Origin: Streptomyces violaceusniger Tu 4113
GTDB lineage: Bacteria > Actinomycetota > Actinomycetes > Streptomycetales > Streptomycetaceae
Direction of reading: 5' to 3'
NCBI RefSeq assembly: GCF_000147815.2
Contig: NC_015957.1
Coordinates: forward strand, 3,658,001 to 3,722,000
DNA length: 64,000 bases
Of this stretch, positions 15,150 to 62,697 are shown one piece after another; within the stretch, counting starts at the first letter, position 1, and each line of letters begins with the position of its first letter. Position numbers and translations under genes: made by a program. Under the pieces are notes generated by a model that made no database searches, was not told where the DNA came from, and saw only the letters and a list, made by a program, of their open reading frames with translations.

Positions 15150-15875
15150 ATGGATCGGGTGAACAACACGAAGATCGCGCTGGTCACCGGCGCGAACAAG
15201 GGAATTGGCTTCGCCATCGCACAGGGTCTCGGAGCGATCGGCTTCACGGTCGCGGTGGGCGCCCGCGACGATGCCAGGCGGAAGGAGGCCGTGGAGCGTC
15301 TGCGTGCCGCGGACATCGACGCGTTGGGGGTCGCCCTCGACGTCACCTCCGACGACAGCGTCGCGGCGGCAGCGGCGACGATCGAGGAGACGGCGGGACG
15401 GCTCGACGTGCTCGTCAACAACGCGGGCATCGGCGGCCGGACCGACGGTGGTGCACAAGATCCGACGACGCTCGACCTCGACGTCGTGCGCACCGTCCTC
15501 GACACCAACGTATTCGGGGTCGTCCGGGTGACGAACGCGATGCTCCCGCTGCTCCGCCGCGCGGACGCGCCGCGCATCGTCAACATGTCGAGCAACATGG
15601 GCTCGCTGACACTGCAGACCGGCCCGATCATGGCCGCGTACGCACCGTCGAAGTCGATGCTCAACAGCGTCACGGCACAGTACGCCCGCCGGCTCGCCGA
15701 CACGAACGTCATCGTGAACGCCGCCTGCCCCGGCTATGTCGCGACCGACTTCACCGGCTTCAACGCGCTGCGGACGCCCGAGCAGGGCGCCGCTATAGCG
15801 ATTCGGCTCGCCACCCTGCCGGACGACGGGCCGCGCGGCGGCTTCTTCGACGACGGGGGTGTCGTCCCCTGGTGA
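15150..15875 (+). CDS. Short-chain dehydrogenase/reductase
   Basis: A 241-residue classical SDR. It has the cofactor motif TGANKGIG near residue 13, NNAG in LDVLVNNAGIGG, a catalytic Ser in IVNMSSNMGSL, and Y-x-x-x-K as YAPSKSML. The build resembles carbonyl-reductase-like SDRs that accept NADPH. Start choice is uncertain: ATG 15150 keeps the full nucleotide-binding strand, GTG 15159 is also possible, and no strong ribosome site is visible for either. It is likely regulated by the divergent LysR protein. Substrate unknown. Confidence 0.88.
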   Translation: MDRVNNTKIALVTGANKGIGFAIAQGLGAIGFTVAVGARDDARRKEAVERLRAADIDALGVALDVTSDDSVAAAAATIEETAGRLDVLVNNAGIGGRTDGGAQDPTTLDLDVVRTVLDTNVFGVVRVTNAMLPLLRRADAPRIVNMSSNMGSLTLQTGPIMAAYAPSKSMLNSVTAQYARRLADTNVIVNAACPGYVATDFTGFNALRTPEQGAAIAIRLATLPDDGPRGGFFDDGGVVPW

Positions 15876-18082: not shown

Positions 18083-19318
18083 GTGAGAATGCTGCACACC
18101 TCCGACTGGCACCTCGGACGGTCCTTTCACCGGGTCAGCCTCCTTGCCGCGCAACGGGAGTTCATCGACCACCTCGTCACCACCGTGCGCGAGCGGCACA
18201 TCGACGCGGTGGTCGTCGCCGGTGACATCTACGACCGGGCCGTGCCGCCGCTCGCCGCCGTCGAGCTCTTCGACGACGCCCTGCACCGGCTCGCGGACCT
18301 CGGCGTGCCCACGGTCATGATCTCCGGCAACCATGACTCGGCCCGCCGTCTCGGCGTCGGCGCCGGGCTGATCGACCGGGCCGGGATCCACCTGCGCACC
18401 GACCCCGCCGGATGCGCCACCCCCGTCGTCCTCTCCGATGACCACGGCGAGGTGGCCTTCTACGGTCTGCCGTATCTCGAACCCGGGCTGGTGCGCGAGG
18501 AGTTGGGCGCCTCCGCGGCCGGTCATACGGCGGTGCTGGGCGCCGCCATGGACCGGGTGCGCGCCGACCTCGCCACCCGGCCGTCCGGCACCCGGTCCGT
18601 CGTCCTCGCGCACGCGTTCGTCACCGGTGGCGCGGTCAGCGACAGCGAGCGGGACATCACGGTCGGCGGAGTCGCCTCCGTACCCGCCGACGTCTTCGAC
18701 GGCGTCGACTACGCCGCGCTCGGCCATCTCCACGGCTGTCAGACCATCACCGAGCGCATCCGCTATTCGGGCTCCCCGCTCGCGTACTCCTTCTCCGAGG
18801 CGGCGCACCGCAAGTCAATGTGGGTGGTGGAGCTGGAGGTGGCGGGCGAGGCGCCGTCGTGCGAACGGGTGGACTGCCCGGTGCCGCGCCCGCTGGCCCG
18901 GATCCGCGGCCGGATCGAGGGGCTGCTGGACGACCCGGACCTCGACCGCCATGAGGAGGCGTGGGTCGAGGCCACGCTGACCGACGCGGTGCGGCCGCAT
19001 GAGCCGATGGCCCGGCTGGCGCGGCGCTTCCCCCACGTACTCACGCTGGTCTTCGACCCCGAGCGGCCCCCCGAGGATCCGCTCGCCTCGTACGCACAGC
19101 GGCTGCGCGGCCGCTCGGACCGGCAGATCGCCGAGGACTTCGTGGCCCATGTGCGGGGCGGCCGCGGCCCGGACGAGGCGGAGCGCGCGCTGCTCGGCGA
19201 CGCGCTGGAGGCCGTACGGAGCGAGGCGCACGAGGGGGTTGTGCCCGGTGAGGAGCACGGCGCGGCGGCGACCGCGACGGCGAGGGCCGGGGCGACGGCG
19301 GGGGAGGTGGCGCGATGA
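18083..19318 (+). CDS. sbcD: Exonuclease SbcCD subunit D
   Basis: A 411-residue Mre11-type nuclease subunit. Metallophosphatase motifs appear in order: SDWHLG, VVAGDIYDR, SGNHDSARR, AHAF and GHLHGCQ, binding two Mn ions. With SbcC it opens DNA hairpins and trims blocked double-strand ends. The C-terminal ~60 residues form the family cap and a low-complexity Ala/Thr tail. GTG 18083 is supported by GGAG 7 bases ahead; ATG 18089 is a second option. Its stop overlaps the sbcC start (ATGA), which implies translational coupling. Confidence 0.95.
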   Translation: MRMLHTSDWHLGRSFHRVSLLAAQREFIDHLVTTVRERHIDAVVVAGDIYDRAVPPLAAVELFDDALHRLADLGVPTVMISGNHDSARRLGVGAGLIDRAGIHLRTDPAGCATPVVLSDDHGEVAFYGLPYLEPGLVREELGASAAGHTAVLGAAMDRVRADLATRPSGTRSVVLAHAFVTGGAVSDSERDITVGGVASVPADVFDGVDYAALGHLHGCQTITERIRYSGSPLAYSFSEAAHRKSMWVVELEVAGEAPSCERVDCPVPRPLARIRGRIEGLLDDPDLDRHEEAWVEATLTDAVRPHEPMARLARRFPHVLTLVFDPERPPEDPLASYAQRLRGRSDRQIAEDFVAHVRGGRGPDEAERALLGDALEAVRSEAHEGVVPGEEHGAAATATARAGATAGEVAR

Positions 19319-25751: not shown

Positions 25752-26246
25752 CTACGAGATTGCCGAGCCGTCTCGGGCGGGCGGCAGCAGCGGGCCGCAG
25801 CTCCACTGCTGGAAGATCAGCCGGGTCTCGACCCGGGTCACCTCGCGGCGCGAGGTGAACTCGTCCAGCACCAGCCGCTGCAGATCGGCGGTGTCGGCCA
25901 CCGCGACATGCACCAGATAGTCGTCCGGCCCGGCGAGGTGGAAGAGCGCCCGGGACTCGGGCAGTGCCCGGATCCGCTCCACGAACGGGCCGACCAGTTC
26001 CCGGCGGTGGGGCCGTAGCTGGACCGAGAGCAGGGCCTCGAGACCGCGTCCCAGCTTGGTGGGGTCCAGACGGAGTTCATGGCCGAGGATCACGCCGGAG
26101 CGGCGCAGCCGGGTCACCCGGTCCAGACAGGTCGAGGGCGCCACGCCGACCTGGGCGGCCAGATCGCGGTAGGTGGTCCGGGCGTCGTTCTGCAGCAGCC
26201 GCAGAATCTGGAGGTCCACCGGATCGAGAGCGACGGTTTCGGCCAT
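25752..26246 (-). CDS. Lrp/AsnC family regulator
   Basis: A 164-residue regulator with an N-terminal HTH (LDPVDLQILRLLQNDARTTY, DLAAQVGVAPSTCLDRVTRL) and a C-terminal RAM domain (LLSVQLRPHRRELVGPFVER, ALFHLAGPDDYLVHVAVAD). Such proteins sense amino acids as octamers. ATG 26246 is used, since upstream in-frame codons run into the divergent promoter. The divergent gene is a PLP-dependent C-S lyase, the classic partner, so it probably responds to methionine, cysteine or a related amino acid. Confidence 0.92.
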   Translation of the reverse strand: MAETVALDPVDLQILRLLQNDARTTYRDLAAQVGVAPSTCLDRVTRLRRSGVILGHELRLDPTKLGRGLEALLSVQLRPHRRELVGPFVERIRALPESRALFHLAGPDDYLVHVAVADTADLQRLVLDEFTSRREVTRVETRLIFQQWSCGPLLPPARDGSAIS

Positions 26247-29514: not shown

Positions 29515-29669
29515 GTACGGTACGCGGCGGCCTTACGACGAGCGGCGCCGGAACGCGGCGGCCTTACGGTGCCCAGCGCGGGAACACGGCGGCCTTACGG
29601 TCGCGGTCAGGCTTGCGCGGCGGCCTTACGGTGCCCGGCGCGGGAACGCGGCGCCCTTACGGTGCCTTC
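29515..29669. repeat. 31-bp tandem repeat, five copies
   Basis: CCTTACG recurs at 29531, 29562, 29593, 29624 and 29655, exactly 31 bases apart each time. The unit consensus contains GCGGCGGCCTTACGGTGCCC, preceded by GGCGCGGGAAC. Copies 1 and 4 are the most diverged. A partial sixth copy (CGGGAACG) begins near 29671. There are no distinct spacers, so it is a minisatellite. It fills the region upstream of phoD. Confidence 0.9.
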
Positions 29670-52232: not shown

Positions 52233-53453
52233 TCACAGCACGCGCTGGGCCTGCCCCTCCGAGGCCCGCGCCTCGGCGAGCTGACGGATCCGGGTGAAGA
52301 CCCGCCCGGCGTCCGGGCCGATCAGATAGTGCGGCATGTCGCCGCGCTCGATCACCCCGTACCGGCTCGTGCCCAACAGATACGAGGAGTACAGGATCAG
52401 CCCGCTCGGCCGGTGCATATCGACGGTGAGCGCCGAGAAGCCCGGGAACTCGTCCGTCTGATAGACGTGCAAGCCGTCCGCCTCCGCTCCATAGCGCTCC
52501 TTGAAACGCCCGAACCGCTCCAGCGAATCCTTGATCTTCCGCGTCATGTCCTCCTGGTACTGCCGGGAGAGCGTGGCCGCCGCGTCCGAGGACGGGTCCA
52601 GCAGATAGCAGCGGTAGGTGCCGCCCCGGCGCAGCAGCCCGAGGATCGCGTCGCGGAAGCGGGCCGGACGCTCGGTGGTGACCAGCCGGCCGGAGGAGGT
52701 GCGCAGCGCCGTCCCCATGTCGAGGACCTCCTCGCCCGCCGCGTCCAGCAGCCGCGCCTTCTCCTGGGGGCTCGGCCGCTCCGGATACGCGTGCACCGGG
52801 GAACCGTCCGAAAGCCCCCGGCCCGCGAGCCACGCCTTGGCCGCCCCGCCCGGACCGCCGTCGCCCGCCATCAGATAGACGTCCTTGCCCTCATGGCTTC
52901 CCACATGGGCGAACAGCTCCGCATACGGCCCCGCGGTGCGGTACACATCCTCCGATACCGCGAGGCAGTCCGCCGGAGTCGCCTTCTCCAGATGCGCGGC
53001 CAGATTGATGTCGGGGGAGTGGATGGTGCCGGTCCGGCCCTCGCCGGTGTGCCGTATCGCCCCCTTGTGCAACGCCATCCGCACATGCAGCTCCCCGTCC
53101 ACCCCCGCCTGGGCGAACTCGTCGCGCAGATGGCGCAGATCCAGGGTGAGAAAGGTGCGGGCCGCCTCCAGCGCGACATCGCGGGCCACGCTCTCGCTGT
53201 CGTCGTGGACCGCGAAGAAGCCCCCGTCGCCGCGCCAGCTCCATAAGTCGCTGCGGGCACAGCGCCGCTGCGCCGAGAGCTGCCCGATCCGGGCGCGCAT
53301 CCGCTCGCGCAGCAGATCGAAGGCGTGCGCGGCGCGGTCCCTGGGGTTCGAGCGGACGATCGTCGAATACCCGGAGGTGTCGACGAAGAGGAGATACACC
53401 TGGTCGTAGGTCCGGTCGGCCTGGAAGGGCTCGCCGTGCAACGGGTCGTTCAT
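52233..53453 (-). CDS. Class III nucleotide cyclase-like domain fused to PLD-like (DUF5919-type) domain
   Basis: A 406-residue cytoplasmic protein. Residues ~15-185 resemble a class III cyclase: VYLLFVDTSGYS with metal Asp25, WSWRGDGGFFAVHDD with metal Asp76, and SPDINLAAHLEKA, where Asn150 is kept. The transition-state Arg expected four residues later is His154. Residues ~260-395 (RDAILGLLRRGGTYRCYLLD, ALTVDMHRPSGLILYSSYLL) resemble the inactivated phospholipase-D-like domains seen in Streptomyces signalling proteins. It may make, sense or only bind a nucleotide. ATG 53453 has no strong ribosome site. It converges with the RsbW-like gene. Confidence 0.6.
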   Translation of the reverse strand: MNDPLHGEPFQADRTYDQVYLLFVDTSGYSTIVRSNPRDRAAHAFDLLRERMRARIGQLSAQRRCARSDLWSWRGDGGFFAVHDDSESVARDVALEAARTFLTLDLRHLRDEFAQAGVDGELHVRMALHKGAIRHTGEGRTGTIHSPDINLAAHLEKATPADCLAVSEDVYRTAGPYAELFAHVGSHEGKDVYLMAGDGGPGGAAKAWLAGRGLSDGSPVHAYPERPSPQEKARLLDAAGEEVLDMGTALRTSSGRLVTTERPARFRDAILGLLRRGGTYRCYLLDPSSDAAATLSRQYQEDMTRKIKDSLERFGRFKERYGAEADGLHVYQTDEFPGFSALTVDMHRPSGLILYSSYLLGTSRYGVIERGDMPHYLIGPDAGRVFTRIRQLAEARASEGQAQRVL

Positions 53454-54091: not shown

Positions 54092-54373
54092 GCGCCACCC
54101 TTCGTGGGCCGACCCCGCCCCGGTGTGGTGGCGGAGTCCTGTCGTCCCCTGGGATGGTCACGCAGCCGCGCGGCCGGTTCCGAGTCGAGAGGGCGCGGTG
54201 TGACGGTGGTCACGGCGGGGCCGTTCGGGTGGTGCCGGTCGCTCCGCCCCACGTCCGTGACCTGCGCGAACGGGCGCGTCGAGGCATGGTGGGGCGGGCG
54301 GGACGCGGACCCGGGGCGCCCGCGGGCCGCAAGCCGACCCCGCCCCGGCCGCCGGAATCCCGCTCCGCCGTTC

Positions 54374-54480
54374 GGGCGACGGCTCGTGCCCCGGCGGGCG
54401 ACGGTCCCGCGCCCCTGGCGGGCGACGGTCCCGCGTCCCCGGCGGGCGACGGTCCCGCGTCCGCGGCGGGCGACGGCCCG
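54374..54480. repeat. 24-bp tandem repeat upstream of NlpC gene
   Basis: GGGCGAC recurs at 54374, 54396, 54420, 54444 and 54468 with periods of 22, 24, 24 and 24 bases. The unit reads approximately GGCGGGCGACGGTCCCGCGT plus four bases. Openness in several frames follows from the period being a multiple of three. The rest of 54092-54373 holds no gene I can support. Confidence 0.75.
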
Positions 54481-54498
54481 CGCCCCGACGGGCGCGTC

Positions 54499-55895: not shown

Positions 55896-56909
<1,014 letters not shown>

Positions 56910-57051
56910 TCATGAGAATCGGGGGTACGCGGCGGGCCGTCAAGTGCGATAGGCGGACACAGGGGTCCGCCGAGCGGAAATCGGGTGCGGGGCCGGAGCG
57001 TGTCCGAGACCCGCCCGACCGGCTTGACCAGCGTCGATGGGGACTGATCAG

Positions 57052-57067
57052 TTAACGCTGACGAAAC
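57052..57067 (+). promoter_or_regulatory. GlnR-box-like site ahead of ureA
   Basis: TTAAC-GCTGAC-GAAAC matches the GlnR half-box pair (gTnAC-N6-GAAAC) at nine of its key positions, 96 bases upstream of ureA. GlnR control of urease genes is established in other streptomycetes. The remaining 56850-57051 holds no gene I can support. Confidence 0.6.
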
Positions 57068-57162
57068 GCCATGGAACTAGCCTGCTCAGGCCGGGTGCGA
57101 GCCGCCCCGGACGTGCTGAGCGGGTGGTTTCCGCCGGGCAGGACGAGGATGAGGTGGGAAGC

Positions 57163-57465
<303 letters not shown>

Positions 57466-57480
57466 CGGGAGGGCGTATCC

Positions 57481-57792
57481 GTGATCCCCGGAGAGATCCG
57501 CCACGCCGATGAGCCGGTGACCCTCAACGAGGGGCGGCCCGTCACCCGTCTCACCGTGCTCAACGCCGCCGACCGGCCCGTCCAGGTCGGCTCCCACTAC
57601 CACTTCGCCGAGGCCAACCCCGGCCTCGACTTCGACCGCGCCGCCGCCCACGGCAAGCGGCTGAATATCGCCGCGGGCACCGCCGTGCGCTTCGAACCGG
57701 GCATCCCCGTCGAGGTCGCCCTGATCCCGATCGCGGGGGAGCGGATCGTGCCGGGGCTGCGCGGGGAGACGGGAGGACGGCTCGATGGCTGA
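57481..57792 (+). CDS. ureB: Urease subunit beta
   Basis: A 103-residue beta subunit: [40 protein letters not shown] and [20 protein letters not shown] are the family landmarks. GTG 57481 has GGGAGG upstream. Its end overlaps ureC by 8 bases, indicating coupled synthesis of structural subunits. Fifteen bases separate it from ureA. Confidence 0.97.
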
Positions 57793-59506
57793 GCTCCACC
57801 GCGCGGCGTACGCCGATCTCTTCGGCCCCACCACCGGGGACCGCATCCGGCTCGCCGACACCGACCTGTTCATCGAGATCGAGGAGGACCGCAGCGGCGG
57901 TCCCGGCCGGGCCGGGGACGAGGCGGTCTTCGGCGGCGGCAAGGTGATCCGCGAATCCATGGGCCAGTCCCGCGCCAGCCGCGCCGAGGGCACCCCCGAC
58001 ACCGTGATCACCGGCGCGGTCGTGCTCGACCACTGGGGCGTCGTCAAGGCGGATATCGGCCTGCGCGACGGCCGTATCACCGGCATCGGCAAGGCCGGGA
58101 ACCCCGACACCATGGACGGCGTCCACCCCGACCTCGTCATCGGGCCCGAGACCGAGGTCATCGCGGGCAACGGCAGGATCCTCACCGCTGGCGCCATCGA
58201 CGCCCATGTCCACTTCATCTCCCCGACCCTCATCGACCAGGCGCTCTGCTCCGGGATCACCACCCTCGTCGGCGGCGGCACCGGCCCCGCCGAGGGCACC
58301 AAGGCGACCACCATCACCCCCGGCCCCTGGCATCTCGCCCGGATGTTCGAGGCCTTGGAGGGATATCCGGTCAACATCGGACTGCTCGGCAAGGGCAACA
58401 CCGTCGCGCGCGAGGCGATGTGGTCCCAACTGCGCGGCGGAGCCCTCGGATTCAAGATCCATGAGGACTGGGGGGCGACCCCCGCCGCCATCGACGCCTG
58501 CCTCGGCGTCTGCGAGGAGAGCGGCGCCCAGCTCGCCATCCACACCGACACCCTCAACGAGGCGGGCTTCGTCGGTGACACCCTCGCCGCCATCGCCGGG
58601 CGCTCCGTCCACGCGTATCACACCGAGGGCGCGGGCGGCGGGCACGCACCCGACATCATCACCGTGGTCTCCCAGCCGAATGTGCTGCCCAGCTCCACCA
58701 ATCCGACCCGCCCGCACACCGTCAACACGGTCGATGAACACCTCGACATGCTGATGGTCTGCCACCACCTCAACCCGGCCGTCCCCGAGGACCTCGCCTT
58801 CGCCGAGTCCCGCATCCGGCCCAGCACCATCGCCGCCGAGGACGTACTGCACGACCTCGGCGCGATCTCGATCATCTCCTCCGACTCCCAGGCCATGGGA
58901 CGGATCGGCGAGGTGGTGCTGCGCACCTGGCAGACCGCGCATGTGATGAAACGGCGGCGCGGAGCCCTCCCCGGCGACGGCCGCGCCGACAACCACCGGG
59001 CGCGTCGCTATGTCGCCAAATACACCATCAACCCGGCGGTGGCCCAGGGCCTCGACGGGGAGATCGGCTCCATCGAAACCGGGAAGCTGGCCGATCTCGT
59101 GCTGTGGGACCCCGCGTTCTTCGGCGTCAAACCGCAACTGGTGATCAAGGGCGGACAGATCGCCTACGCGCAGATGGGCGACGCCAACGCCTCCATCCCG
59201 ACCCCGCAGCCGGTCCTGCCGCGCCCCATGTTCGGCGCGCTCGGCCGCGCGGCGGCCACGGGCTCGGTCAACTTCGTGACCCAGGCGGCGCTGGACGACG
59301 GGCTGGTGGACCGGCTGGCGCTCGGTAAGCGGTTCGCCCCGATCCGCTCCACGCGAGGGGTCACCAAGGCGGACATGCGGGAGAACGACGCCCTGCCGCG
59401 AGTCGAGGTCGACCCCGACACGTTCACGGTGACGATCGACGGCGAGCCCGTGGAACCCGCCCCGGCGGCGGAACTCCCCATGGCCCAGCGGTACTTCCTC
59501 TTCTGA
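57785..59506 (+). CDS. ureC: Urease subunit alpha
   Basis: The 573-residue catalytic subunit. Nickel ligands and active-site residues are visible: [12 protein letters not shown] (two His), [12 protein letters not shown] (carbamylated Lys), [20 protein letters not shown] (His), [12 protein letters not shown] (His), the flap His in [20 protein letters not shown], and the Asp in [15 protein letters not shown]. Length is standard. It hydrolyses urea in the cytoplasm and needs UreDFG for nickel loading. Confidence 0.98.
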
Positions 59507-59517
59507 CGGGGCCCGTC

Positions 59518-60978
59518 ATGACCACGAACGAGATCCCGCAGCCCACGCCCCGGGACGGCCGCGGCGGTCCGGCCACGGGTGGGCCGCCGGCGGACCTTCC
59601 CCAACCCCGCCCCTCCCCGCAACCAGGGGGCGCCGCCCCCTGGACCCCCGACAACCCGCCCCCGGACGGACCGCATCAGGCCCGCCGGCCGGCGGGAGGC
59701 ATGCCGGTAGGGCGAGCGGCGGGGGCGGGGCGACGGGGCATGCATGGGGGGCCCGGGGCCGGGGGTGCGGCGCCCGGCGGGGTTCGGGGTGATGTGGGTG
59801 GTGGGGTTCGGGGTGAAGTCCCCGGCGGGGCGCGTGGTGATGTGCGGGGCGAGGTCTGGGGTGACGCCCGCGGCGGGGTTTGGGGTGATGTGGGTGGTGG
59901 GGTTCGGGGTGAAGTCCCCGGCGGGGCGCGTGGTGATGTGCGGGGCGAGGTCTGGGGTGACGCCCGCGGCGGGGTTTGGGGTGATGTGGGTGGTGGGGTT
60001 CGGGGTGAAGTCCCCGGCGGGGCGCGTGGTGATGTGCGGGGCGAGGTCTGGGGTGAAGCCCTTGGCGGGGTTCGGGGCGAAGTCCCCGGCGGGGTCCGTG
60101 GCGATGCGCCCGGTGAGGTCCGGGGCGCCACCCCCGGCGGGTCTCAGGGCGAAGCCTGCGGTGAGTCCCGGGGCGAAGCGCCCGGTGGGCTCTGGGGCGA
60201 AGCCTGCGGCGAGGTTCAGGGCGAAGGCCGTGGTGGGGCTCGGGGGGACACTCCCGGACGGGTCCGTGGTGACGCGCCCGGTGAGGTCCGGGGCGGAGCC
60301 CAGGGTGGGGTCGCCGCGTTGCTGATTCTGGCCGATGGCCGGTTCCCGGCCGGAGGCCATGCCCACTCCGGCGGGGCCGAGGCTGCCGTCGCCGCGGGGC
60401 GGATCCGCGACGCGGCCTCCCTGGAGGCGTTCTGCCGGGGCCGGTTGCACACCGCCGGGCTCACCGCGGCCGGGCTCGCCGCCGCTGCCGCCTCCGGGCT
60501 CGACCCGCTCGCGCTGGACGAGGCGGCGGACGCCCGTACTCCCGTCCCCACGCTGCGCACCACCGCCCGGCGGCTCGGCCGCCAGTTGATGCGCGCCGCC
60601 CGCGCCACCTGGCCGTCGCCCGAGCTGGACGCCCTGGCCGCCGCCCGGCCGCGCGGGGCGCATCAGCCCGTGGTGCTCGGACTCGTCGCGCGCGCCGCCG
60701 GACTCGGGTCGCGGGACGCCGCGTACGCCGCCGGGTACGAGGCGGTGAGCGGGCCCGCGACCGCCGCCGTACGGCTGCTGAGCCTGGACCCCTTCCACGC
60801 CACCGCCGTCCTCGCCCGCCTCGCCCCCGAGCTCGACCGGGTCGCGGCGCGGGCCGCCGAGGCGGCTCGGCGCGCCCTCGACGAGGGCCCGGGCGCGCTG
60901 CCCGCCGCCTCCGCACCCCTGCTCGACATCGCCGCCGAACAGCACGCCACCTGGTCCGTACGTCTCTTCGCCTCATGA
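59518..60978 (+). CDS. ureF: Urease accessory protein UreF with long Gly-rich repeat extension
   Basis: The C-terminal ~220 residues are Ure[66 protein letters not shown]-like [15 protein letters not shown] and [18 protein letters not shown]. UreF works with UreD and UreG in nickel insertion. Ahead of it the frame is open for ~265 residues of 8-residue Gly-rich repeats, including three 32-residue copies. No in-frame ATG or GTG lies between about 60040 and the core. The start is therefore ATG 59518, a GTG inside the repeats, or TTG 60319 behind GGTGGGG. Confidence 0.85.
59788..60075. repeat. 96-bp tandem repeat (three copies) at the 5' end of ureF
   Basis: Three near-identical 96-base units lie at 59788-59883, 59884-59979 and 59980-60075, each starting GGTGATGTGGGTGGTGGGGT. 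They are embedded in a wider array of degenerate 24-base units from about 59770 to 60310. In the ureF frame a unit encodes [20 protein letters not shown] plus [12 protein letters not shown]. Copy 3 diverges at its end. Confidence 0.95.
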
Positions 60979-61030
60979 CCGAGGCGGTGACCCCTATCCC
61001 CCCGCACCCCGTTGGAACCACGGAGCCGTC

Positions 61031-61723
61031 ATGCATCTCGACCACGCGGACACCTACCCCCCGCGCCACACCTACGGCGCCGCCGCCCCCCACCGCCCCG
61101 ACGGCACCCGCCGGGCGCTGCGCATCGGCCTCGGCGGACCGGTGGGCTCGGGCAAGACCGCGACCGTCGCGGCGCTGTGCCGGGCGCTGCGCGACCAGCT
61201 CTCCATCGCCGTCGTCACCAATGACATCTACACGCGCGAGGACGCCGAGTTCCTGCTGCGCAACGCCGTACTGCCGGCGACACGCATCACCGCCGTGGAG
61301 ACCGGCGCCTGCCCGCACACCGCGATCCGCGACGACATCTCCGCCAACCTGGAGGCGGTCGAGGAGCTCGAGGAGACCGTGGGCCCGCTCGATCTGATCC
61401 TCGTCGAGTCCGGCGGCGACAACCTCACCGCGACCTTCTCCAAGGGCCTGGTCGACGCGCAGGTGTTCGTCATCGATGTCGCGGGCGGCGACGACATCCC
61501 CCGTAAGGGCGGCCCCGGCGTGACCACGGCCGATCTGCTCGTCGTCAACAAGACCGACCTCGCCCCGTACGTCGGCTCCGACCTGGAGCGCATGGCCCGC
61601 GACGCCAAGGCCCAGCGCGGTGAACTCCCCGTCGCCTTCACCTCCCTGGTCGCCGAGGACGGCGTCCGCCCCATCGCCGACTGGGTCCGCACCCGCCTGG
61701 CCGCCTGGACGGCGGCGGCATGA
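61031..61723 (+). CDS. ureG: Urease accessory GTPase UreG
   Basis: A 230-residue SIMIBI GTPase that powers nickel transfer. The P-loop is [20 protein letters not shown]; other landmarks are [33 protein letters not shown] with the metal Cys-Pro-His, and [13 protein letters not shown]. The N-terminus has a short His stretch ([16 protein letters not shown]) that may help metal binding, since ureE is absent. ATG 61031 has GGAG upstream. Its stop overlaps ureD (ATGA). Confidence 0.97.
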
Positions 61724-62697
61724 CGCCCGCTCAGGACGCGGCGGCCCGCGCGGAGCCGCCGTGGGCGGGCGATCCGGCCGCGTCGGGCGGGGCACGGCCG
61801 CACCCCTCGCCGCGGACGTCCGGGCGCGGCTCGGCGCGGGAAACCCCGGACAACGGACGCGCCCCGGGTGCCTCAGGTACGAAGGCCGCCCCCGGTACGT
61901 CGGGCGCTTCCGCTGCACCAGCCACCCCCGGCACCCCCGCCACCCCAAGCACCGGCCTGCAGGCCACCGCCCGCATCGTCGCCGAGGCGGACGGTCGCGG
62001 CGGTACCGCGCTGCCCGTCCTCGCCGGGGACGGCCCGCTCGCCCTACGGCGCACCCGGGCCGTGGGCGGGGAGGCGCGCGTTACCGTGGTCGGGGCCATG
62101 AGCGCGCCCCTCGGTGGGGATCGCATCGCCCTGGAGGTGACGGCCGGACCGGGGGCCCGGCTGCACATCGGTTCCGCCGCGGCCACCATCGCCCTGCCCG
62201 GGCGGACGGGCCGGCCCGCCCACTACGAGATCCGGCTGACCGTCGCCGACGGTGCGACCCTGCACTGGCTGCCCGAGCCCCTGATCTCCGCCCAGGGCAG
62301 CGATCTGCGCATGACCACCAGGGTCGAACTCGCCCCCACCGCCCGTCTGGTGCTCCGCGAGGAGCAGATCCTGGGCCGTACCGGCGAATCTCCGGGCCAT
62401 CTGACGGCCCGCCTCACCGTCCACCGCGCCGGGCGCCCCCTCCTCGACCAGGAGCTCTCCTACGGCCCCGGCGCCCCCGGCTGGGACGGCGGCGCGGTAC
62501 TCGGCGGCCATCGCGCGGTGGGCCAGCTCCTCGTCGTCGACCCGTCCTACGCCACCGGCCCCGTCGCCCCCCGCGCCCTCACCGGGACCGCCGTCCTCAC
62601 GCCGCTGACCGGCCCCGCCGCCCTGGCCACCGCCGCGGCCCCGGACGCCCTCCACCTCCGCCGCGCGCTCGATGAGGCGGGCGCGGCCGTGGGCTGA
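61720..62697 (+). CDS. ureD: Urease accessory protein UreD/UreH
   Basis: A 325-residue UreD-type scaffold. After an Ala/Pro-rich, apparently disordered first 75 residues, the domain shows [74 protein letters not shown] and [20 protein letters not shown]. It links UreF/UreG to apo-urease. The final gene of the ureABCFGD operon, with a four-base overlap with ureG. Confidence 0.93.

What the first reader, a model, noticed from the sequence alone, without database searches (positions are those of the whole stretch)
59518..60321. UreF frame carries a ~265-residue Gly-rich repeat extension
The sequence shows an open ureF-frame extension built of 24-bp (8-codon) units, including three near-identical 96-bp copies. 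UreF family proteins normally start almost directly at [19 protein letters not shown]. Because units are multiples of three, copy number changes keep the frame. No ATG or GTG lies in frame in the last 270 bases before the core, so some repeat sequence is translated unless TTG 60319 is used. It could be a flexible tether, a phase-variable modulator of nickel loading, or an expanding minisatellite between ureC and ureF. A second plus frame is also open here, so openness alone is not proof.
Basis: partly seen in the sequence, partly recalled or inferred. Interest (0 to 1): 0.8.

Follow-up and report, generated by a model that had tools for sequence, protein, structure and literature searches.

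The report
Growing repeat tails on urease chaperones
In one group of Streptomyces soil bacteria, the urease helper protein UreF, and its partner UreD too, seems to carry a long, floppy, fast-changing front end made of tandem repeats; the reading frame is nearly always kept while the UreF tail's amino acids drift freely, so it is probably a tolerated tail and not a switch.

Summary
From ATG 59518, 11 nt after the ureC stop, the frame is open into the UreF core, adding 267 codons with twenty-two 24-bp units and three 96-bp copies. Eight relatives also have extensions. In all nine the ureF frame has no stop (1,356 codons; 43 stops in the other two forward frames). In eight of nine an in-frame ATG lies just after the ureC stop; in G188 it is the only in-frame ATG/GTG/TTG, so translation is very likely. 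G380 is the exception: its start is out of frame. The alignable part of the tail shows no amino-acid constraint (pN/pS 0.99; core 0.24), which argues against a sequence-specific function. The main units are multiples of three, so copy number does not switch the frame. New here: UreD has the same kind of tail (10-206 aa, 10 of 10 in frame from a start overlapping the ureG stop); UreG does not. Unrelated hexapeptide tails occur on UreF of another actinobacterial lineage. Some database entries start inside or after the tail. Best reading: coupling fixes the start codon at the preceding gene's stop, so minisatellite growth behind it becomes tolerated protein. A solubility or tether role is untested.

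The parts
57163..57465 (+). ureA (urease gamma)
   Evidence: Pfam PF00547 in the translation from 57124; start at 57163 set by eye from the ORF translation
57481..57792 (+). ureB (urease beta)
   Evidence: Pfam PF00699
57785..59506 (+). ureC (urease alpha), stop TGA 11 nt before ATG 59518
   Evidence: Pfam/NCBIfam urease alpha
59518..59775 (+). non-repeat first part of the UreF tail ([22 protein letters not shown]...), alignable among relatives
59624..59648 (+). GC-rich hairpin element inside the tail, one of a small dispersed family
   Evidence: 9 copies (this one included) with at most 1 mismatch to a family pattern in 11.1 Mb, 0 in the reversed control; stem-loop in the predicted RNA fold
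59776..60303 (+). 22 tandem units of 24 bp (8 codons, GGVRGEAP-like)
59776..60063 (+). three near-identical 96-bp copies (4 units each), a recent amplification
60304..60978 (+). end of tail and UreF core ([18 protein letters not shown]...)
   Evidence: Pfam UreF PF01730, protein residues 296-436, 98.9 bits
60319..60321 (+).
   Evidence: TTG in 5 and CTG in 4 of 9 tailed species
59744..60325 (+). second open plus frame (193 aa), GC3 0.93; judged compositional
   Evidence: no Pfam match; no constraint in any frame of the alignable segment
61031..61723 (+). ureG; N-terminus not extended in relatives
   Evidence: TIGR00101
61720..61962 (+). UreD N-terminal low-complexity tail, 81 aa; ATG overlaps the ureG stop (ATGA)
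61963..62697 (+). UreD core
   Evidence: Pfam UreD PF01774

Best explanation
ureF is translated from ATG 59518, coupled to the end of ureC. Everything between that ATG and the UreF core is a probably disordered N-terminal tail that has grown by in-frame tandem duplication of 24-bp units. The start codon stays beside the ureC stop (termination-reinitiation; no clear Shine-Dalgarno), so DNA gained between start and core becomes protein and is purged only if it shifts the frame or brings in a stop. The UreF core does its usual job in the UreF-UreD nickel tunnel; the tail is exposed, tolerated and nearly free to drift. The same process has acted on UreD, whose start overlaps the ureG stop. Shown: open frame, start position beside the ureC stop, in-frame lengths in nearly all relatives, no amino-acid constraint in the alignable UreF tail segment, UreF and UreD tails in one clade, unextended UreG. 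Inferred: actual translation, disorder, tolerance, reinitiation.
For: Nine of nine tailed loci (window plus 8 species) have 0 stops in the ureF frame over 1,356 codons, against 43 in the other two forward frames, 19 of them in the window's own repeats and flanks. In 8 of 9 an in-frame ATG lies 1-14 nt after the ureC stop; in G188 it is the only in-frame ATG/GTG/TTG before the core, 166 aa upstream. All 12 of 130 genus loci with a ureC-to-core gap over 150 nt are open in the ureF frame back to the ureC stop. A first peptide M(T/P)TNE(I/T)P is shared by seven species, window included. UreD: 10 of 10 loci in frame from a start overlapping the ureG stop, tails 10-206 aa; the eight longest ureG-stop-to-UreD-core distances of 111 loci belong to this clade, S. 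sabulosicollis (L092) counted in it by its tail and 91% UreF core identity. UreG not extended in 7 of 7 relatives. pN/pS of the first 60 codons 0.99 against core 0.24. One UreF match in the genome, with ureABC, ureG and ureD open, so it should be the working copy. N-terminal GST-UreF and Strep-UreD constructs were used in published work (PMC10121161 passages; whether the GST stayed on in the assays I did not see), and a UreE-UreF fusion is called soluble and functional in the title of Kim 2006, seen only in a reference list.
Against: No direct evidence of translation. ATG 59518 has a weak Shine-Dalgarno (-5.0 kcal/mol, near the window median of -4.3; ureB -12.4, ureC -12.7), the G188 start is weaker still (-1.7), while internal ATG 59740 (-11.1) and TTG 60319 (-7.9) look better. 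Repeat codons are atypical: GC3 0.66 against 0.92 in the core, and the alternative plus frame has GC3 0.93. In G380 the conserved start is out of the ureF frame, so that strain would need an internal start unless the assembly is wrong. pN/pS near 1 is also what an untranslated spacer would give. Variation within the arrays is greatest at ureF third positions (p 0.008), but the synonymous share (47%) lies just inside the 95% bound of a column-shuffle null (47.7%), so it does not prove coding. The first 40 codons of the UreD tail give pN/pS 0.55, so that tail may not be neutral. Public entries of relatives start inside or after the tail. Eight of 8 other hairpin copies and 3 of 4 array-like matches lie outside coding-like ORFs. 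Charge-hydropathy puts the UreF tails on the order/disorder boundary, not clearly disordered.
Confidence: 0.7

Rival explanations
1. The 801 bases are an untranslated spacer with a minisatellite; UreF begins at TTG 60319 and the frame is open mainly because the DNA is GC-rich.
For: pN/pS near 1; atypical GC3; P of no stop in the window alone 0.088; G380 frameshift; a database entry whose core matches that of G188 at 100% is given as 219 aa.
Against: TTG is CTG in 4 of 9 tailed species and G188 has no ATG/GTG/TTG other than the far ATG; 9 of 9 open, product P 3.5e-5 if independent; the start would cut into the conserved AALL block; UreD tails, whose start is fixed by the ureG stop overlap, are in frame in 10 of 10.
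Confidence: 0.13
2. Initiation inside the tail (ATG 59740 or the in-frame GTGs of the array) makes one or several shorter UreF forms; repeat number then sets the number of start sites.
For: Six in-frame GTGs at 48-bp steps and ATG 59740 with a strong SD-like match; database entries of relatives begin inside the tail; G380 needs it.
Against: G188 has none of these starts, and internal starts sit at different places in the other relatives. GGGG tracts like those of the array may pair with the anti-SD anywhere (inference).
Confidence: 0.17
3. The paired tails are an adaptation: hydrophilic bristles that keep UreF and UreD soluble, or tethers between chaperones.
For: Two partner proteins extended in one clade and UreG not; an unrelated Gly/Pro/charged tail on UreF of another actinobacterial lineage; a UreE fusion is called soluble and functional (title only); UreD tail segment pN/pS 0.55.
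Against: No amino-acid constraint in the UreF tail segment; lengths vary widely, 49-270 aa for UreF and 10-206 aa for UreD; no UreF-UreD distance correlation outside the clade (rho 0.10, p 0.31, n 101).
Confidence: 0.15
4. ORF 59744-60325 or an antisense ORF is the real gene and the ureF frame is its shadow.
For: GC3 0.93 in ORF 59744-60325; antisense ORFs open; one antisense frame has a synonymous share of 53% in the arrays, above that of the ureF frame, because its third positions coincide.
Against: No Pfam match for three such ORFs; synonymous share only 10% in the frame of ORF 59744-60325; no constraint in any of six frames of the alignable segment.
Confidence: 0.03
5. The repeat number is an assembly artefact.
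For: Three near-identical 96-bp copies; the S. sabulosicollis contig ends inside the tail (L092).
Against: G188 and G407 hold their own, different arrays of the same unit; the window lies in a 10.66-Mb contig.
Confidence: 0.04

Closest known systems
UreF urease accessory protein (Pfam PF01730; solved structures 2wgl, 3o1q, 3sf5, 4hi0, 3cxn, 8hc1, 6jc4)
   Same: Core matches PF01730 and, through an alignment profile, the solved UreF chains; place between ureC and ureG
   Different: 267 extra N-terminal codons of repeats; most Streptomyces UreF of the sample start within 15 aa of the core
UreD urease accessory protein (PF01774)
   Same: Core match and place after ureG
   Different: 81-aa low-complexity tail here, up to 206 aa in G395
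Hexapeptide-repeat N-terminal tail on UreF of Streptosporangiaceae and metagenomes (P0036, P0083, P0085 and others)
   Same: Gly/Pro/Arg/acidic repeat tail before the UreF core
   Different: Different unit, (D/E)xGxxP; 24 proteins found among 8000 scored candidates, 22 with the UreF domain, 2 with UreF-like sequence by eye; two of the 24 bear the name Streptosporangiaceae, most others are unnamed
His-rich N-terminal extension of UreG in Aspergillus fumigatus (PMC10100864, one passage seen)
   Same: N-terminal extension on a urease accessory protein
   Different: On UreG, His-rich, proposed to replace UreE; the UreF tail here has 2 His in 267 residues
Low-complexity regions in prokaryotic proteins (PMC6821194, passages seen)
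   Same: Gly/Pro/Ala-rich LCR; bacterial LCRs are enriched in these residues
   Different: Here on two partner proteins of one operon, frame kept but UreF tail sequence unconstrained

Membership tests
UreF (PF01730) | Profile match above gathering score over the whole domain | tested here: met
   98.9 bits (cut-off 23.3), profile 1-151 of 151. No NCBIfam match, but two ordinary-length UreF proteins (P0003, P0163) have none either
UreF (PF01730) | Place in a urease operon with open partner genes | tested here: met
   ureABC-F-G-D open and matched
UreF (PF01730) | Supports urease activation with UreD and UreG | not testable with these tools
   needs an activity assay
UreF (PF01730) | UreF fold by structure prediction | not tested
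   prediction tool accepted no jobs
Phase-variable contingency locus | Repeat number changes switch frame or promoter | tested here: not met
   all array periods of the window are multiples of three (one weak 26-bp row in G383); no sigma-70-like site in 59400-60400
Translated low-complexity tail | Frame kept across relatives | tested here: met
   0 stops in 9 of 9, start in frame in 8 of 9; UreD 10 of 10 in frame
Translated low-complexity tail | Protein detected | not testable with these tools
   no proteomics data at hand
Functionally constrained disordered region | pN/pS well below 1 | tested here: not met
   UreF tail segment 0.99; UreD tail segment 0.55 on 40 codons, inconclusive
Intrinsically disordered region | Charge-hydropathy on the disordered side | tested here: inconclusive
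   seven UreF tails lie at the boundary (-0.022 to +0.073), core -0.285, five hexapeptide tails +0.24 to +0.38

The most novel reading that the evidence does not exclude
Coupled start codons act as a ratchet: where a start is fixed at the previous gene's stop, spacer growth is forced into protein, and in this clade both proteins of the nickel tunnel, UreF and UreD, have thereby gained long disordered tails that now work as built-in solubility bristles on chaperones that otherwise aggregate.
Probability: 0.12. Interest if true: 0.65.

Novelty: new variant of a known kind. Interest (0 to 1): 0.45.

Why it matters
It looks like a natural series for watching spacer DNA become protein: closely related species hold UreF tails of 49 to 270 residues and UreD tails of 10 to 206, in frame with one exception (UreF of G380), the UreF tail drifting freely in front of a well conserved core. 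If the tails are translated, it would show how little the N-termini of UreF and UreD matter for nickel delivery, offer natural fusion tags to test for solubility, and correct gene models that begin inside or after the tail in at least some database entries.

Tried and rejected
Phase variation by frame shift: not supported. Separate gene in the second plus frame or antisense: no Pfam match, no constraint. Plasmid origin: no match in the plasmid collection in 'near' mode only. Dispersed copies of the array in the genome: four short matches besides itself, with 40 of 159 candidates scored. G-quadruplex as driver: stretches at 59401-59801 are the most G4-rich of the window, but the array's coverage (105 of 543 bases) is close to that of base-shuffled versions (mean 92, largest 207), so not pursued. 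RNA structure: no unusual stability in three stretches folded. Metal-binding tail: 2 His and 2 Cys in 267 residues. Sigma-70-like promoter or terminator in 59400-60400: none. Rfam over 56800-61100 at gathering threshold: only a hit antisense within ureC. Matches that reach far into the tail: in the five I looked at (L014, L024, L027, L028, L030) the upstream stretch is ureC read out of frame, with normal 23-38 nt gaps. Literature: ten searches; in the titles and abstract starts listed I saw no paper on such a UreF or UreD tail. Two listings were cut (15 of 25; 8 of 14). The three papers holding 'UreF' and 'N-terminal extension' speak of other proteins at that phrase. The library is open-licence PMC papers only.

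Length-change control: 64 predicted window genes plus UreF against 77 kb of G188; 16 had no hit in that block, the antisense shadow of ureF was left out, 48 remained, 5 of them (UreF included) under 80% coverage were dropped. Of 43 kept (UreD among them) 38 differ by at most 5 aa, 34 by nothing. The method fails on repeats: UreF was dropped and UreD scored +1; their true differences (486 against 382 aa, 325 against 405 aa) come. Five of 43 exceed 5 aa: +482 (dubious ORF at 15793), +112 (at 52233, the extra piece upstream of its likely start), +21 (at 29631), -10 (at 19315), -7 (at 25964).

Full report
What is there. The window is a Streptomyces chromosome segment (own genome 11.1 Mb; window at G000 C3:3658001-3722000; genus inferred from the named relatives). 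The urease operon reads ureA, ureB, ureC, ureF, ureG, ureD. The ureF frame is open from ATG 59518, 11 nt after the ureC stop, to the stop ending at 60978 (486 aa). Pfam UreF covers residues 296-436. In front lie 267 codons: a non-repeat part with a hairpin element (59518-59775), then 22 units of 24 bp, four of which were recently amplified as a 96-bp block present three times.

How unusual. Of 131 distinct UreF loci drawn from the best matches of four searches (a sample biased towards close matches), 130 included the ureC stop. The median distance from ureC stop to core motif is 39 nt; 109 of 130 have an in-frame ATG/GTG within 15 aa of the core, 11 at 16-30 and 10 beyond 30. Twelve have distances over 150 nt, and in 12 of 12 the ureF frame is open back to the ureC stop. 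On a tree of 130 UreF cores these 12 need three gains or losses (two forced by well-supported branches); nine of them fall in the window's fork of ten, whose tenth member, L123, has a 22-aa extension (several forks are weak).

Relatives of the window. Tails: G188 166 aa, G407 183, G383 108, G395 84, G119 237, G203 (the S. himastatinicus locus) 56 with a different first peptide, S. rugosispiralis 49, and G380, whose start is out of frame. G188 and G407 carry the same 24-bp unit in their own arrays. G119 has a 144-bp unit x2 and G383 a 27-bp unit x3. So the tail has grown several times with different units; the main periods are multiples of three, one weak 26-bp row in G383 (2.2 copies, 75%) is not. 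In these nine loci the ureF frame has no stop in 1,356 codons; the other two forward frames have 43 stops, 19 of them in the window. A first-order Markov simulation gives P of no stop between 0.09 and 0.75 per species, product 3.5e-5 if independent, which related species are not. In 8 of 9 the start ATG lies in frame 1-14 nt after the ureC stop. In G188 no other in-frame ATG, GTG or TTG exists before the core. TTG 60319 is CTG in G188, G407, G383 and G203. Database entries begin inside or after the tail, for example a 234-aa S. antimycoticus entry starting MSGGVRGEARGGV and a 219-aa S. violaceusniger entry; their DNA was not seen.

Constraint. Over the first 60 codons in seven species (21 pairs; S. 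rugosispiralis only 35-38 aligned codons) pooled pN is 0.211 and pS 0.213, ratio 0.99; the core gives 0.039 and 0.165, ratio 0.24. No other frame of that segment shows constraint (0.89-1.07). Within the arrays (35 unique units of three species) third positions of the ureF frame vary most (entropy 0.54, 0.74, 1.11; p 0.008), but the synonymous share, 47%, is just inside the 95% bound of a column-shuffle null, and one antisense frame scores 53% because its third positions coincide. The frame is kept and the sequence is not, which fits a tolerated tail and does not support a sequence-specific function. Openness alone would also fit an untranslated spacer; the start-codon evidence is what speaks against that.

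UreD does the same. The ureD start (ATG in 8, GTG in 2) overlaps the ureG stop in 10 of 10 clade loci, all in frame with the UreD core, with tails of 81 (window), 161 (G188), 37 (G407), 46 (G383), 83 (G380), 206 (G395), 95 (G119), 10 (G203), 48 (S. rugosispiralis) and 167 aa (S. sabulosicollis) (the 69 nt before the GPLALRR motif counted as core). Stop counts say nothing here, since the other frames are nearly open too; the evidence is the fixed start and the in-frame lengths. In 111 loci the median ureG-stop-to-core distance is 86 nt, 106 are in the in-frame class (the other five have their first start 1-9 nt after the ureG stop), and the eight largest are all in this clade. G188 has about thirteen degenerate 18-bp units there (read). 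The first 40 codons of seven UreD tails give pN/pS 0.55 (core 0.28), so the UreD tail may be partly constrained. UreG is not extended in 7 of 7 relatives. As a control, of 43 predicted window genes (UreD among them) that align over at least 80% to the syntenic block of G188, 38 differ by at most 5 aa (the dropped rows, exceptions and failure on UreF/UreD are told under Tried and rejected). Outside the clade UreF and UreD distances do not correlate (rho 0.10, p 0.31, n 101); over all 110 loci rho is 0.29, p 0.002, which the clade drives.

A second lineage. Some UreF proteins, two of them named Streptosporangiaceae and most from metagenomes, carry an N-terminal tail of degenerate hexapeptides, (D/E)xGxxP. 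A search with that tail found 24 proteins at E up to 1e-3 among 8000 scored candidates; 22 have the UreF domain and the other two continue into UreF-like sequence by eye. No DNA of that lineage could be fetched, so its constraint is untested.

Mechanism. ATG 59518 has little Shine-Dalgarno (-5.0 kcal/mol, window median -4.3; ureB -12.4, ureC -12.7, ureG -5.8, ureD -6.4), which fits reinitiation after ureC. I infer that coupling fixes the start beside the previous stop, so spacer growth becomes tail. The hairpin element belongs to a family of nine near copies; the eight others (two of them 71 bp apart) lie outside coding-like ORFs, so the tail may hold captured spacer DNA. The caveat is that the tail itself also fails that ORF criterion. 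The UreFD tunnel paper (PMC10121161, passages seen) used N-terminally tagged GST-UreF and Strep-UreD constructs, and the title of Kim 2006 (seen only in a reference list) calls a UreE-UreF fusion soluble and functional; both suggest that N-terminal additions are tolerated. That UreF and UreD of Klebsiella are poorly soluble alone is recalled and comes from no call.

Verdict. Translation of the tail is likely (about 0.85, my judgement); a specific function is not supported. The UreF and UreD tails in one clade and the unrelated hexapeptide tails elsewhere make it more than a curiosity, but it remains a variant of known low-complexity tails on a known protein.

Noticed in passing
61720-61962 and loci L175-L181, L096, L092: UreD carries its own low-complexity, often repeat-rich N-terminal tail in the same clade, in frame in 10 of 10 loci.
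   Followed up: yes
L153 / L178 (G380): The conserved ureF start is out of the ureF frame although the rest of the tail is open; real frameshift or assembly error.
   Followed up: partly
54358-54494: Another 24-bp tandem array (about 5 copies), between two predicted minus-strand genes.
   Followed up: no
29518-29666: 31/62-bp tandem array at the upstream end of the ORF at 29631; that ORF differs by 21 aa from its G188 counterpart.
   Followed up: no
57945-58239, minus strand: Rfam RF02514 (5' ureB sRNA) scores above threshold antisense within ureC; probably conservation of the urease alpha codons.
   Followed up: no
P0022, P0024: UreF proteins with a repeat-rich insertion inside the core, a second place that tolerates growth (by eye).
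   Followed up: no
L029 (G012): UreF core preceded by an in-frame SDGQG pentapeptide repeat in a Streptomyces outside the clade; a GTG 8 aa before the core exists there.
   Followed up: no
P0084: 784-aa protein with urease alpha and UreF domains, a possible UreC-UreF fusion.
   Followed up: no
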